Of a DNA stretch of 64,000 nucleotides, positions 1 to 6,142 are shown in pieces. The notes beneath the pieces were generated by a model that did no database searches, had not been told where the DNA came from, and saw only the letters and a list, made by a program, of their open reading frames with translations. The position numbers were made by a program, and so were the translations under genes. Position 1 is the stretch's first letter. Each line of letters starts with the position of its first letter. The stretch spans positions 1-64,000 of the forward strand of contig NZ_QHJG01000001.1 in the NCBI RefSeq assembly GCF_003184185.1, written 5' to 3'. Source of the DNA: Legionella qingyii (GTDB lineage: Bacteria > Pseudomonadota > Gammaproteobacteria > Legionellales > Legionellaceae).

Positions 1-368
1 AATTATTCTTTTTTTAAAAATAATGGTCACTTATTGTGACCATCTCTCAGGCATAAAGCGCGTGAAGTGGGCGGAATTAAATGAAATGTCAACAGACCCT
101 TGTGGGTAGCGAACTAAATTTTAAAAACAATTTCCGTTGACCTCGATTATTAGACAATAAAGAATTATAATCCCGAAAAAAATCTTGCTTCTGTTTCTGT
201 GATTTTTCCATAAGTCTTTTACTATTGACGTTAAATATAATATATTGGATGAATGTAAGTTCTTACTCGCTTCTTTTAAGAATAAGCAACAAAACAAACC
301 AAATTGTGGAAAAAATACTCGATCGGTAGAGGCTAAACCCAATTTGAGTTTTTCATCCGGCCATAACT
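1..368. other. Intergenic region upstream of the Pls-type synthetase
   Basis: No convincing gene. Positions 23-43 hold a perfect hairpin (8-bp arms ATGGTCAC and GTGACCAT, 5-nt loop). Read on the reverse strand it is followed by a T-rich tail, so it could be a terminator for leftward transcription, but no reverse-strand gene is visible next to it. The stretch from about 120 to 368 is very AT-rich and should contain the promoter of the forward synthetase gene; I could not pick a single good -35/-10 pair. Confidence 0.4.
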
Positions 369-3300
369 ATGAAACTTCATCACTTTTTTGAGCAATCAGT
401 TGATAATTATTCAGACAATATTGCTTTGATTTGCGATAATGCGTTTATTTCCTATCAAGAGTTAGAAAATCGTGCGAATCAATTAGCTCATTATCTTCAT
501 GAGAACAAAATTTCCAAGGGTAGCATTGTAGGCATTCTATTAGAGCGATCTATAGAATGCTATATTGCTATATTGGCGACGTTAAAAACAGGTGCAGCTT
601 ATGTACCTATTGAAGTAGATTATCCCGACGAACGGATTAATTATATTTTCTCTGATCTGCCTTTTGATGCGGTTTTAACTTCGTCTATGCAATTGACCCA
701 AAAGAATCTGGCATGGCCAGCTTTTTATGCAGTTGATCAATTGGCCGAGGAAATTTCCAGATGCCCCTCACAGCGATTAATTCTTCAAGAAGATTTAACT
801 GCTGATGACGTGTGTTACATCATTTACACGTCAGGCTCTACTGGAAAGCCTAAAGGAGTAGAAATTACCCAGCGCAGTATTTGCCATTATGTGCAAGTTG
901 CGAGCAAACTTTATGATATAAAAAGTAATGATAAGGTATATCAAGGCTTTTCTTTGGCATTTGACGCCTCTTTAGAAGAGTTTTGGATGGCTTTTGCCAA
1001 TGGCGCCGCCCTGGTTGCGTGTACAGCAAAAGAAGTGCGCTCTGGTCTAGGTCTAATCTCCTTTTTACAACAACACCGAGTTAGTGTTTTTTCAACAGTA
1101 CCTACTTTATTGTCTACTTTAGAAGGCCAATTACCGGATCTACGCCTTTTAATCCTGGGTGGAGAATCTTGCCCATCTAGTTTGGTTAAGCGTTGGAGCA
1201 GAGAGGGGCTGCGAATTATTAATACTTATGGCCCTACTGAAGCAACGATTATTGCAACTTATGCAGAATGTCATCCTGAACAGGAAGTGACCATTGGTAA
1301 ACCCTTGCCAGGTTATGAAGTCCTCATCGTTGATGAACAATTACGAGAAGTAGCTGTAGGAGAGGAGGGCGAGCTGTGTATTGCTGGAGTTGCCCTAGCT
1401 CGTGGTTACGTCAATCGACCAGAGGATACAGCAAAAAAGTTTGTTTTAAATCCGGTAAATAATAATCAACGCTTATATCGAACAGGGGATTTAGTTTCAA
1501 GAGCTCCTAGTGGTGATCTCCTTTTTGCAGGGAGAATAGATGATCAAATCAAATTGCGTGGGTTTCGTATTGAATTAAACGAAATTGAAACGATTATCAT
1601 GCAATATGCTGGAATTAAACAAGCCGTGGTTTCATTGCAAACCCTGGAGCAACCTACGCTCGTTGCTTATTTGATTCTTGATCCAAAAAATGCATTTGAT
1701 GTAAATGAATTTAAAATCTTTTTAAGGTCACGCTTACCTGATTACATGCTGCCATCCCTAATTGAGATTTTAGAAACGTTTCCAGTTTTAGCCAGCGGTA
1801 AAGTGAATCGCAAAGAGCTTCCTAGACCTGTGCAAAAGTCAGAAAATGTTTATATAGCACCAGAATCTGAGTTAGCTAAGGAAATTGCTCTAGTCTGGGA
1901 AAATGTATTTGATTGTAAGAATATTTCTGCTGGAGCAGACTTTTTCTATGATTTAGGTGGACATTCACTGCATGCCGCAAAAGTAATTTCTAATTTACGC
2001 AAAATACCTGCCTTAAAAAATATTTCAATACTTGATTTATATAAAAATCCAACAATTAAGCAATTAGAACAGAAGTTTAGTGCCCCTCATAGCAATCCAC
2101 AAATTGATGGGCAACAAACGGTTAAGAACAAGTACAAAGTACCACAATGGAAATACTATTTGTGTGGGGTTGGTCAATTTTTTGGATGCTTATTGCAATA
2201 CGCGGTAGGTACTTTACAGCTATTGGCTGTTATTTTGTGCTACAGCTGGGTTAGCTCTGAGTATTCGATTATTTCCAGAGAGTCACAGCTTGCATTTCTA
2301 GCTTTGTTTTTATCGATGCCAATCATTTCGTTATTTATCACGATTGGTTTGAAATGGATATTATTGGGACGGGTAAAGCCTGGTGAATATCCACTTTGGG
2401 GATGGTTCTATTATCGTTGGTGGTTAGTGCAAAGGCTGCAGAAGAATTTGTTTTTAGCTAAATTTTTAGTTGGTTCGCCATTAGCTGGTATCTATTATCG
2501 CTTACTAGGAGCTAAAATAGGTAAGAACTGTTATTTGGGTTCCATGCAAATTTCTGCACATGATTTGTTGACCATCGGAGATAATACTTCTATTGGTGCG
2601 GACAGTAGACTTAACGGTTATATCATTGAGGACGGTTGGTTAAAAATAGGCCCTATCAATATCGGCAATAATTGTTATATAGGTTCACGTGCCGTTGTTG
2701 GGTTAAATACACAGATTGAAGATCATGGCGTCTTGGATGAAATGTCCATGCTACCTGATCAGGGCTTAATTCCTCAAGGAGTCTATTTTTCAGGCTCTCC
2801 AGCGGTTCCAGGTACTATTCCTGCGGATCATGTTACTCGGAAAAAAGTTGCGGTTGACGAATCTACCATGCTGGAAAATACCCTTTTTGGTATTTTGCAT
2901 TACTTAGGCGTCGTTTTTGTCATGGTGGTTTATTATTTATGCTTAATTCCCTCAATCTCTTTAATTAGCTATTACTATGATCAGAGTCACTATCTGACCA
3001 CCATGTTTTTTGCCATACCTTTAGGGGCTATCCTGTTTTTAGGATTATATTATTCCGCTATTGTGCTCTGTAAAAAGATTATTTTGGATAAGGTAAAACC
3101 CGGTGATTATCCCTTGAAGAGTTTTTATTATTTCCGTCATTGGATTCTGGTGAAATTATTGGATGGGGATGAAATCTCGATTATGGCAGACACTTTATAT
3201 ATGCCTGCTTTTTTACGATTGCTGGGGGCAAAATTAGGGAAGGGAGTAGAAATGGGGGAAACTCCGCATATTATTCCTGACCTAGTCACCATTGAAGAAG

Positions 3301-4343
3301 GTGGTTTTACCGCCAGTTCTGTCGCTCTAGCCTGGCCTAGTGTTTATAATGGTTTTATTTCTTTTGCTCCGGTGACCATCGGACGTAGAGGCTTTGTAGG
3401 GAATGTCAGTTTATTATCTGCTGGTAAATCGATTGGTGAAGGCGCTCTATTAGGATGTCTATCAGTGACTCCATCAGATGGCAGAGCAGCAGAGCCTTAT
3501 TCTGCCTGGCTAGGTTCACCTGCTGTTTTTTTACCAAAGCGAGAGTTATTTGTTGGATTTTCTGATAAGGATACATTTTATCCCTCCAAAAAGCTCTATT
3601 TCATGCGCTTACTCATTGAATTTATACGAATTATTTTACCATCGACTTTTTCATTAATTGCATTATTCAATATGCTTTATGTCTTGGATTATATGTTAAG
3701 TGAGTACTCCTGGCTTGTTACCGCACTGATTCTTCCACCAGTAGAGATGTTCATTACAGTTTGTCTTGTTGGCGTGTTGGTCGCCCTCAAATGGATAATG
3801 TTAGGTAAATTAAAACCTTTAACCAAGCCTATTTGGGATCCCTTTATTTGGAAAAATGATGTGATCGAATATTCGTATAACTATTATACGAACCCGCATT
3901 GGACTAATAAAGTTTTAGGGACTCCTTTTGCGCTTTGGGTGCATCGTTGTTTAGGAACTAAAGCAGGGAAGAGGGTTTTCACAGACAGTGCCGAGTTTTC
4001 AGAATTTGATTTAATTACAATTGGTGATGATGTATGTATCAATGCCGAGACTATAATTCAAACTCATCTCTATGAGGATAGAATATTCAAAGTCTCAAAT
4101 GTCACTATTGGTTCTGGTTGTAATGTAGGTGTTGGATCAATTGTTCTCTACAACACGTTGATGGAAGAAAACTCTTCTTTGGGTAGTCTTTCTTTACTAA
4201 TGAAGGGGGAACGGTTACCTGAAAATACTCATTGGGCTGGTATTCCTGCACAATCGACAGCACTTGGATTGTCACATCAACAAGTTGCCCCTCAACTTGC
4301 TCCAGAAGAAAGTCCAGAAGAAGCTCTTCCAGAGTTATTGTAG
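369..4343 (+). CDS. Pls/PosA-type single-module nonribosomal peptide synthetase
   Basis: Domains in order. Adenylation domain (about residues 1-490) with core motifs YTSGSTGKPKG, TYGPTE, YRTGD, GRIDDQIKLRGFR and NRKELP. Peptidyl-carrier domain with LGGHSL, the phosphopantetheine serine being Ser533. A C-terminal half with three repeats of paired hydrophobic segments, each followed by a soluble hexapeptide/left-handed beta-helix-like block; KPGEYPL (about residue 668), KPGDYPL (about 908) and a diverged KPLTKPI (about 1146) mark the repeats. There is no condensation or thioesterase domain. This is the architecture of the epsilon-poly-lysine synthetase Pls and related homopolymer synthetases. 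My alignment of specificity residues to GrsA-Phe gives D199 A200 E203 S242 I262 G264 T286 I294 I295 K478, a pattern resembling lysine/ornithine codes. Likely a membrane enzyme that activates and joins a basic amino acid; product unknown. Start ATG is preceded by a weak ribosome-binding site. Confidence 0.85.
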   Translation: MKLHHFFEQSVDNYSDNIALICDNAFISYQELENRANQLAHYLHENKISKGSIVGILLERSIECYIAILATLKTGAAYVPIEVDYPDERINYIFSDLPFDAVLTSSMQLTQKNLAWPAFYAVDQLAEEISRCPSQRLILQEDLTADDVCYIIYTSGSTGKPKGVEITQRSICHYVQVASKLYDIKSNDKVYQGFSLAFDASLEEFWMAFANGAALVACTAKEVRSGLGLISFLQQHRVSVFSTVPTLLSTLEGQLPDLRLLILGGESCPSSLVKRWSREGLRIINTYGPTEATIIATYAECHPEQEVTIGKPLPGYEVLIVDEQLREVAVGEEGELCIAGVALARGYVNRPEDTAKKFVLNPVNNNQRLYRTGDLVSRAPSGDLLFAGRIDDQIKLRGFRIELNEIETIIMQYAGIKQAVVSLQTLEQPTLVAYLILDPKNAFDVNEFKIFLRSRLPDYMLPSLIEILETFPVLASGKVNRKELPRPVQKSENVYIAPESELAKEIALVWENVFDCKNISAGADFFYDLGGHSLHAAKVISNLRKIPALKNISILDLYKNPTIKQLEQKFSAPHSNPQIDGQQTVKNKYKVPQWKYYLCGVGQFFGCLLQYAVGTLQLLAVILCYSWVSSEYSIISRESQLAFLALFLSMPIISLFITIGLKWILLGRVKPGEYPLWGWFYYRWWLVQRLQKNLFLAKFLVGSPLAGIYYRLLGAKIGKNCYLGSMQISAHDLLTIGDNTSIGADSRLNGYIIEDGWLKIGPINIGNNCYIGSRAVVGLNTQIEDHGVLDEMSMLPDQGLIPQGVYFSGSPAVPGTIPADHVTRKKVAVDESTMLENTLFGILHYLGVVFVMVVYYLCLIPSISLISYYYDQSHYLTTMFFAIPLGAILFLGLYYSAIVLCKKIILDKVKPGDYPLKSFYYFRHWILVKLLDGDEISIMADTLYMPAFLRLLGAKLGKGVEMGETPHIIPDLVTIEEGGFTASSVALAWPSVYNGFISFAPVTIGRRGFVGNVSLLSAGKSIGEGALLGCLSVTPSDGRAAEPYSAWLGSPAVFLPKRELFVGFSDKDTFYPSKKLYFMRLLIEFIRIILPSTFSLIALFNMLYVLDYMLSEYSWLVTALILPPVEMFITVCLVGVLVALKWIMLGKLKPLTKPIWDPFIWKNDVIEYSYNYYTNPHWTNKVLGTPFALWVHRCLGTKAGKRVFTDSAEFSEFDLITIGDDVCINAETIIQTHLYEDRIFKVSNVTIGSGCNVGVGSIVLYNTLMEENSSLGSLSLLMKGERLPENTHWAGIPAQSTALGLSHQQVAPQLAPEESPEEALPELL

Positions 4344-4416: not shown

Positions 4417-5181
4417 TTACCCCAACAAATAATTGTCAATTAAGCGGATGTTATCAATTCGTACTGCCGCAAAACGACGACCTTGATGTTCTTCAACATA
4501 CTCTACAGCAATCCCTTTTTGAGTTAATTGTTTGATGATTTGCTCACATGTCAGCTCTTTTTGCTGGAATAATCTGGCAAACTCTTCAGCCAAGGCCTTT
4601 TGCTCTTGATTGAGGCGGTTATTACGTGAGCTGTAAGCTAATCCACTTGGTTCACGGATCGTTGGACATGCTTTAATTTCAATATCCATAAAAAAAGCAT
4701 TAACCATCCCTTGAATCAATAAGTATTGTTGATAGTCTTTTTCACCGAAGTATGCTCTTTGAGGCTTAGCTAAGTTCAATAATTTCATCACTACAGTTAA
4801 TACACCGTTAAAGTGCCCGGGCCTATGGGTTCCTTCCATGAGTTGGCAAAGTTGATGCTCATGTACCTGATAATTGTATTCATCCACATACATGGATTGT
4901 TCATCCGGAAGAATGCAAAAATCGACACCGGAATCTTCCATAATTTTAAGATCCGCTTCTAATGTTCGAGGATAAAGTTTAAAGTCCTCGGTTTGATTAA
5001 ATTGTGTTGGATTTACAAATAGACTGGAAATAGTATAGTGATTCTCTTTTTTACTGGCTAAAAACAGAGAGGCATGCCCCGCATGCAAATTACCCATGGT
5101 TGGCGCAAAGCCCAGAGTTAATTGGGTAGATAAAGTTTTACGAAAGCTTATCCATTCGTTCAGATCGTGAAAAATTTTCAT
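4417..5181 (-). CDS. panC: Pantoate--beta-alanine ligase (pantothenate synthetase)
   Basis: Catalyses ATP-dependent condensation of pantoate with beta-alanine to pantothenate, in the cytoplasm. Family signs: N-terminal [16 protein letters not shown] (the HAGH adenylate-forming signature), [15 protein letters not shown], the block [29 protein letters not shown], and [16 protein letters not shown] (the RDxxGLAxSSRN-type motif). Length 254 aa is slightly shorter than the usual 280 or so. It is the second gene after panB on the reverse strand, but 172 bp holding two hairpins separate them, so tight co-transcription is uncertain. Confidence 0.95.
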
Positions 5182-5353: not shown

Positions 5354-6142
5354 TTAAAATGAATGTTCCGCCGTTGGAAAATTGACCTGTTGAACCTGCT
5401 GTGCATAGGCATTTAATGCATCTAATAGAAGTTCTTTGCCTTGAAGGTATCTTTTGACAAACTTGGGATTAAATTCTGTTTGTAAACCCAGCATGTCATG
5501 CCAAACAAGAACCTGTCCATCAGTATGAGAACCCGCTCCAATACCAATAGTAGGTATACTTAACGACTCGGTTATTGTGAGCGCTAGTTGTTGGGGAACA
5601 CATTCGATGACTAGAGCAAAACATCCAGCCGCCTCTAACTGATGAGCTTGCTGGAGTAGTTGTTCTGCCTGCTCTTTGTTTTTTCCCTGTATCTTATAGC
5701 CACCTAATTGATGAATGGATTGAGGGGTTAAACCGATATGTCCAACAACTGGGACGCCTGCATTTACGAGATAGGAAATGGTGTGACACGTATCTGCATC
5801 TGCCCCTTCAATTTTCACTGCTTGCGCACCTGCTTGTAATAAGTGTTTTACATTATCTACAGTTTGATTGAGTGAACTTTTATGGCATAAAAAGGGAAGG
5901 TCACTGATTAAAAATTGCTGTTTTAGGCCGCGTGCTACAGCTTGGGTATGAAGTATCATCATCTCCATGGTAGCCGTAACGGTTGTTTCATGGCCGTGTA
6001 CGGCCATGGCTACAGAATCTCCGACCAGGACGCAATCAATATTTGATTCAGCTACAATGCAGGCAGATGGATAATCGTAGCAAGTTATCATGGAAATTTT
6101 TTGTTGTTCTTCTTTTTTACGTTTGAAATCATGAATTTTCAT
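5354..6142 (-). CDS. panB: 3-methyl-2-oxobutanoate hydroxymethyltransferase
   Basis: First committed step of pantothenate synthesis: transfers a hydroxymethyl group from methylene-tetrahydrofolate to ketoisovalerate, giving ketopantoate. A 262-aa TIM-barrel protein with MITCYDYPSA, VLVGDSVAM (metal-binding region), the GHIGLTPQS motif, VIECVP, and TIGIGAGSHTDGQVLVWHD, all characteristic of PanB. Length is typical. It lies upstream of panC on the same strand; the divergent gene beyond the 380-bp gap is an alpha/beta hydrolase. Confidence 0.95.
   Translation of the reverse strand: MKIHDFKRKKEEQQKISMITCYDYPSACIVAESNIDCVLVGDSVAMAVHGHETTVTATMEMMILHTQAVARGLKQQFLISDLPFLCHKSSLNQTVDNVKHLLQAGAQAVKIEGADADTCHTISYLVNAGVPVVGHIGLTPQSIHQLGGYKIQGKNKEQAEQLLQQAHQLEAAGCFALVIECVPQQLALTITESLSIPTIGIGAGSHTDGQVLVWHDMLGLQTEFNPKFVKRYLQGKELLLDALNAYAQQVQQVNFPTAEHSF

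What the first reader, a model, noticed from the sequence alone, without database searches (positions are those of the whole stretch)
369..4343. Pls-type synthetase with a lysine/ornithine-like specificity code
The enzyme has one adenylation domain, one carrier domain and a three-fold membrane/hexapeptide C-terminal half with no condensation or thioesterase domain. That is the plan of epsilon-poly-lysine-type synthetases, which make homopolymers of basic amino acids. My manual alignment with GrsA gives the specificity residues DAESIGTIIK; the E at the third place and the DAExIG pattern resemble Lys/Orn-activating domains. A cationic polymer from an intracellular pathogen would be a notable and possibly undescribed product.
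Basis: partly seen in the sequence, partly recalled or inferred. Interest (0 to 1): 0.75.

Follow-up and report, generated by a model that had tools for sequence, protein, structure and literature searches.

The report
Predicted poly-lysine synthetase in Legionella
A Legionella relative carries an intact, well-conserved enzyme of a known family that strings one basic amino acid, most probably lysine, into a short positively charged polymer; the enzyme kind is known, but I found no report on its product in Legionella.

Summary
ORF 369-4343 (+), 1324 aa: one adenylation domain, one carrier domain, and a C-terminal half of three membrane-plus-beta-helix repeats, without condensation or thioesterase domains. 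NCBIfam already names the family (TIGR02353, Pls/PosA; 558 bits, cut-off 423). The code DAESIGTIIK is right: it differs from epsilon-poly-L-lysine synthetase (7WEW, DAESIGTVVK) by two Val-to-Ile changes, keeps the lysine contacts a review names for 7WEW, and lacks the Met and Ser tied to ornithine in PosA. 120 of 120 listed homologs keep DAES[IVL]GT[IV][IV]K. Best reading: an iterative membrane L-lysine polymerase making epsilon-poly-L-lysine-like oligomers. The window is Legionella (93% DNA identity to Fluoribacter gormanii). The gene stands alone among housekeeping genes, under purifying selection (dN/dS 0.07), with over-cut-off matches in 45 of 143 Legionellaceae genomes. It lies apart from the actinobacterial Pls branch. 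New member of a known kind. Not shown: activity, product, linkage, length, export, role.

The parts
369..4343 (+). Pls/PosA-family synthetase gene, 1324 aa
   Evidence: ORF; TIGR02353 558 bits, cut-off 423; homologs to 97% identity
369..1820 (+). adenylation domain (residues 1-484)
   Evidence: PF00501; PF13193 below cut-off; GrsA, LgrA, 7WEW, 8G95 matches; model of residues 1-490, pLDDT 90.1
963..1802 (+). span of the ten specificity residues D199 A200 E203 S242 I262 G264 T286 I294 I295 K478
1911..2072 (+). carrier (thiolation) domain; phosphopantetheine serine S533 (codon 1965-1967)
   Evidence: PF00550; G530 G531 H532 S533 L534 invariant in 18 aligned rows, the window included
2121..2855 (+). 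C1 repeat with TM pair 1
2847..3581 (+). C2 repeat with TM pair 2
3567..4268 (+). C3 repeat with TM pair 3; holds the only histidine of the C half invariant in 50 rows, H1233 (codon 4065-4067)
4417..5181 (-). panC (pantoate-beta-alanine ligase), convergent neighbour; housekeeping, not part of the system
   Evidence: sequence; gene name by recognition
5354..6142 (-). panB, housekeeping neighbour
   Evidence: sequence; gene name by recognition

Best explanation
The gene encodes a single-protein, iterative, membrane-bound L-lysine polymerase. Inferred cycle: the A domain makes lysyl-AMP from L-Lys and ATP; lysine is loaded as a thioester on the phosphopantetheine of S533 (attached by an Sfp-type transferase, reported for Legionella but not looked for here); the C1-C3 body on its six-helix membrane base holds a growing chain and joins it to the loaded lysine through an isopeptide bond (side-chain amine to carboxyl), repeatedly. 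The product would be a short epsilon-poly-L-lysine-like polycation. Shown here: domain plan, code, repeat structure, conservation, selection. Inferred from family members: every catalytic step, linkage and product. Unknown: chain length, export, biological role (antagonism of competitors, an effect on the envelope or on the protozoan host are all open).
For: TIGR02353 Pls/PosA over the cut-off. A-T-C1C2C3 plan, six long TM-type helices, no C or TE domain. Code 8/10 identical to 7WEW, read as DAESIGTVVK from its alignment with L085; 27 of 27 readable loci, of the 30 that one search returned from the class of a Rhodococcus genome, have that same code. Lysine contacts of 7WEW kept with near-identical spacing. 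Ala at the chain-length position. 120 of 120 listed homologs keep the code pattern. Purifying selection: dN/dS 0.071 against F. gormanii, beside panC 0.089, panB 0.110 and feoB 0.116.
Against: No activity or product data. The family score (558 bits) is well below that of the 30 actinobacterial loci fetched (693-886 bits), identity to the 27 readable ones is only 29-33%, and the trees do not place it beside them, so the substrate is carried over from a distant enzyme. Positions 8 and 9 are Ile instead of Val. I recognised no dedicated exporter, polymer-degrading enzyme or regulator next to it. Fold comparison of the A-domain model does not single out 7WEW (rank 27).
Confidence: 0.8

Rival explanations
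1. It polymerises L-ornithine (or a shorter diamino acid), as PosA does.
For: PosA is a characterised Gram-negative member; its A domain is among the PDB matches; PosA also binds lysine in a crystal, so the two specificities are close.
Against: PosA code DMEHNGTVSK against DAESIGTIIK, 5 of 10 alike. PosA Met218 is Ala200 here, His260 is Ser242, and Ser313, whose change to Ala cost PosA 183-fold, is Ile295. Loci with the PosA code (such as L055, L062, L064, L073) form another branch.
Confidence: 0.08
2. It activates lysine, but the product is not a free polymer: one or a few lysines are passed to another acceptor (a lipid, amine or envelope component), the hexapeptide-acyltransferase-like body acting as a transferase.
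For: Matches of the C half in solved structures, all weak, are mostly acyl- and acetyltransferases and gamma-carbonic-anhydrase-like proteins with left-handed beta-helices; there is no thioesterase, and no dedicated exporter recognised nearby.
Against: The characterised members with this plan that the papers name make homopolymers; the three-repeat, six-helix body is intact.
Confidence: 0.08
3. It takes another basic monomer, such as beta-lysine or D-lysine.
For: The published epsilon-poly-beta-lysine code DGESISVVNK shares Asp, Glu, Ser, Ile and Lys; stereochemistry cannot be read from the code.
Against: That code has Gly at position 2, Ser at 6 and Val at 7, against Ala, Gly and Thr here.
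Confidence: 0.04

Closest known systems
Pls, epsilon-poly-L-lysine synthetase of Streptomyces albulus (A domain PDB 7WEW)
   Same: A-T-C1C2C3 plan with six TM helices; code 8/10 identical with the two differences Val to Ile; the lysine contacts named kept
   Different: 29-33% identity to its likely actinobacterial relatives; separate branch of the tree; no gene recognised as a peptidase like PldII, which a paper lists in the gene context of Pls
PosA, delta-poly-L-ornithine synthetase of Acinetobacter baumannii (8G95-8G98)
   Same: same family model and plan; Gram-negative pathogen; Asp and Glu anchors and Thr of the pocket
   Different: code DMEHNGTVSK; the Met, His, Asn, Val and Ser positions differ
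DAES-code homologs of Bacteroidota (Pedobacter L019, Hymenobacter L026); I met no characterisation of them
   Same: near-identical code; grouped with the Legionellaceae rows in the C-half tree (86% SH-aLRT), not in the A-only tree
   Different: 32-35% identity over the C half; longer stop-to-stop frames, 1498 and 1565 aa

Membership tests
Pls/PosA family (TIGR02353) | terminal domain over the curated cut-off | tested here: met
   558.2 bits, cut-off 423.1, profile 9-695 of 695
Pls/PosA family (TIGR02353) | A and T domains, no condensation or thioesterase domain | tested here: met
Pls/PosA family (TIGR02353) | three tandem C repeats separated by six TM helices | tested here: met
   hhalign 100/100/99.8% and hydropathy; model
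epsilon-poly-L-lysine synthetase (Pls) | lysine pocket as in 7WEW | tested here: met
   D, E, S, T, K contacts kept; code 8/10
epsilon-poly-L-lysine synthetase (Pls) | phylogenetic place inside the actinobacterial Pls branch | tested here: not met
   separate branch in the full, A-only and C-half trees
epsilon-poly-L-lysine synthetase (Pls) | makes epsilon-linked lysine polymer | not testable with these tools
   needs enzymology
delta-poly-L-ornithine synthetase (PosA) | ornithine pocket (Met at position 2, Thr and Ser supporting) | tested here: not met
   Ala200 and Ile295 here; Thr286 is shared

The most novel reading that the evidence does not exclude
A second, independent lineage of lysine-polymer synthetases (Legionellaceae, with Bacteroidota and a few others) makes a poly-lysine whose job is not antibiosis in soil but life inside or beside protozoa, for instance acting on the vacuole or on the bacterium's own surface. 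This would explain a stand-alone gene under purifying selection like that on its housekeeping neighbours.
Probability: 0.2. Interest if true: 0.65.

Novelty: new member of a known kind. Interest (0 to 1): 0.4.

Why it matters
If the prediction holds, about a third of the Legionellaceae genomes searched (45 of 143), from an amoeba-associated group that includes human pathogens, encode a maker of a membrane-active cationic polymer. In my paper searches I found no report of one from Legionella (open-licence papers only, and searches list 20 of 80 and 20 of 46 papers), and the Legionella natural-product survey that I read in part does not contain the word lysine in its main text. The sequence gives a sharp prediction (lysine, not ornithine) for a lineage in which I met no characterised enzyme. 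The enzyme kind itself is published and already named by NCBI annotation.

Tried and rejected
Structure as a specificity test: Foldseek of the A-domain model ranks GrsA and anabaenopeptin A domains, among others, above 7WEW (rank 27), so the fold does not decide the substrate. PDB search of the whole protein or its profile: the top rows are bimodular gramicidin synthetase, whose two domains add up; this led to using L085 to read the 7WEW code.

Biosynthetic cluster: looked for and not found. Neighbours are ftsY, ftsE, ftsX, rpoH, two alpha/beta hydrolases, panC, panB, a third alpha/beta hydrolase, an AFG1/ZapE-like ATPase and feoB (names by recognition except the Pfam hydrolase rows). I considered the two hydrolases upstream as polymer-degrading enzymes; one is a dienelactone-hydrolase-family protein with a match in 20 of 20 examined genomes, 7 of them with an over-cut-off synthetase, one with an interrupted copy and 12 without, so a tie to the synthetase is not supported.

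Recent gene import into the window: not supported. GC of the region (0.38-0.39) lies within the range of the window, 0.36-0.42, and the same slot holds the gene in several species. In other Legionellaceae it lies elsewhere (L007, L009, L010, L012; G071), so the slot is not universal.

Cluster F of PMC5126622 (single-module 'A, T and C') might be this gene, but the text I saw does not settle it.
Full report
What is there. The ORF at 369-4343 (+), 1324 aa, is exactly as described. hmmscan gives TIGR02353 'Pls/PosA family non-ribosomal peptide synthetase' at 558.2 bits, cut-off 423.1, covering profile 9-695 of 695. Pfam shows one AMP-binding domain (7-347), a weak AMP-binding_C (405-478, 22.1 bits, cut-off 24.5), one PP-binding domain (515-568) and hexapeptide repeats; no condensation or thioesterase domain. 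The carrier motif G530-G531-H532-S533-L534 is invariant in 18 aligned rows, the window included.

The C-terminal half. I cut residues 585-1300 into thirds on an alignment of 50 family members, the window included, and compared them as profiles: C1-C2 probability 100%, C1-C3 100%, C2-C3 99.8%. The AlphaFold model from that alignment has mean pLDDT 92.4 and pTM 0.91, with three repeats of two long helices, a strand, short helices and a left-handed beta-helix (the handedness follows from the family, not from a measurement of mine). A hydropathy scan gives six segments in three pairs. Matches among solved structures are weak and mostly to hexapeptide acyltransferases and gamma-carbonic-anhydrase-like proteins. 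This is the C1-C3 and six-TM plan described for Pls (passages of PMC8117764, and PMC8506220) and modelled for PosA (section of PMC10522769). Across the 50 rows the only invariant histidine is H1233 in C3, with E1236 and K1241 close by; a catalytic role is my inference.

The code. Of the 120 homologs listed (of 7991 with E <= 0.001; the others were not listed), 120 keep DAES[IVL]GT[IV][IV]K. Of 80 loci from the genome-contig scan (itself a capped list), 76 gave a readable frame; L014, L024, L036 and L048 were dropped. Outside Legionellaceae the codes were of several kinds, among them DFEY.., DMEH.. (the PosA type), DLED.. and, mainly in Bacteroidota, DAES... One of them, L085, aligns to PDB 7WEW (epsilon-poly-L-lysine synthase) at 550 bits, and 7WEW itself reads DAESIGTVVK there, the last Lys being that of the closing GKVDR motif.

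Lysine rather than ornithine. In 7WEW the substrate contacts named are D213, E217, S256, T301 and K495 (passage of PMC11253843); the window has D199, E203, S242, T286 and K478, with the same offsets from the Asp for Glu and Ser, one residue less for Thr and three less for Lys. PosA, with code DMEHNGTVSK, uses Asp217, Met218, Glu221, Thr304 and Ser313; loss of the hydroxyl of Ser313 cost 183-fold and of Thr304 33-fold, and changing Met218 to Ala raised the efficiency with lysine nearly tenfold. The authors tie position 2 to chain length: Phe for Dap/Dab, Met for Orn, Ala for Lys. The window has Ala at position 2 and Ile at the Ser313 position. Code identity is 8/10 with 7WEW and 4-5/10 with the five other codes compared.

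Where it is. The best matches are Legionella; the window is 93% identical in DNA to Fluoribacter gormanii ATCC 33342 over about 12 kb, and the protein is 97% identical. No whole genome is held for the window. In L001, L002, L008, L011 and L025 the order is ftsY-ftsE-ftsX-rpoH-hydrolase-hydrolase-synthetase-panC-panB (gene names by recognition). L004, L005 and L006 share the upstream side, but panC is not next to the gene; L003 shares the two hydrolases and its contig ends soon after the gene. In L007, L009, L010 and L012 none of these neighbours was found beside it, apart from a 28% FtsE-like match in L009. Among 20 genomes searched for panC and for the upstream hydrolase, nine have the two convergent and close: about 2.0-2.4 kb apart in eight and 119 bases in one. 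Eight of the nine have no over-cut-off synthetase; G071 has one on another contig. I read two of the nine (L114, L116), and there a biotin-carboxylase-like gene (named by recognition) and an AAA_28 gene (Pfam on the L114 copy) fill the gap.

Distribution and selection. 45 of 143 Legionellaceae genomes have a TIGR02353 match over the cut-off; the 45 include one frame of 708 aa (G079) and the 1139-aa frame of L. longbeachae. Most weaker rows are short stretches, and the control of 14 well-known genomes behaves alike (13 ring, 1 over the cut-off). Completeness of these genomes is not told, so absence is not proven. Copies in L006 (L. longbeachae; open frame 1139 aa) and G073 (one internal stop, split over two frames) look shortened or interrupted. 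dN/dS of the whole gene is 0.071 against F. gormanii, 0.064 against L. steelei and 0.118 against L. santicrucis. The C half is lower than the A domain in the first two (0.047 and 0.044, against 0.082 and 0.066) but not in the third (0.114 against 0.095). For comparison panC has 0.089 and 0.064, panB 0.110 and 0.071 in the first two, and feoB 0.116 in the first. dS is above 0.95 against L. steelei and L. santicrucis, so those ratios are rough; against L011 it was mostly saturated and is not used.

Phylogeny. Legionellaceae form one clade (SH-aLRT 100). They are not beside the actinobacterial Pls branch in any of the three trees; of the 12 DAESIGTVVK actinobacterial rows, 11 form that branch and L110, a long row, falls elsewhere. 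In the C-half tree Legionellaceae group with four Bacteroidota, one cyanobacterial and one Xanthobacteraceae row, all with DAES codes (14 rows, 86%); the A-only tree and the full tree do not recover this. The PosA paper mentions a small third group of unique sequences and epsilon-PL homologs; whether this is that group I could not check, since supplements were not readable.

What is known. NCBI records already call several of these proteins Pls/PosA family. PMC10522769 (abstract, sections 10, 11, 13, 14 and passages) reports PosA and a wide spread of the family; the search counts no occurrence of Legionella in it. PMC5126622 (abstract, sections 16, 17, 20 and passages) surveys Legionella natural products, does not contain 'lysine' in its main text, and reports a single Sfp-like transferase in all strains analysed. 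Searches for poly-lysine terms with Legionella gave 0 papers and 10 papers that from their titles and the starts of their abstracts are about other things; I saw the 20 best of 80 and of 46 papers, titles and starts of abstracts, and nothing there names this gene. The library holds open-licence papers only.

Verdict. An ordinary but real and well-supported member of a known enzyme family, in a genus for which I found no report of its product, and on a branch apart from the characterised lysine enzyme. Catalysis, linkage, chain length, export and role remain inference.

Noticed in passing
L081:597-1313 (-) and L117:1-1296 (-), Fluoribacter gormanii genome: A stand-alone 238-aa protein resembling a single Pls C repeat (best NCBIfam match TIGR02353, 52 bits) lies next to a GH3-family adenylate-forming enzyme (Pfam), with acyl-CoA-dehydrogenase-like and carboxyltransferase-like genes beyond (by recognition). 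It could be a split, one-repeat relative of Pls; short frames with similar weak matches occur in Legionellaceae with and without an over-cut-off synthetase.
   Followed up: partly
L006 (Legionella longbeachae) and G073:C1:378072-380122: Copies of the synthetase gene that look shortened or interrupted, suggesting loss in some species.
   Followed up: no
L114, L116 (Legionellaceae genomes without an over-cut-off synthetase): The hydrolase-panC gap holds a biotin-carboxylase-like gene and an AAA_28 gene where the window clade has the synthetase.
   Followed up: partly
window 22-44: A stem-loop of 9 pairs (G-T allowed) followed by a T-rich stretch on the minus strand, terminator-like, about 325 bases upstream of the gene.
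   Followed up: no
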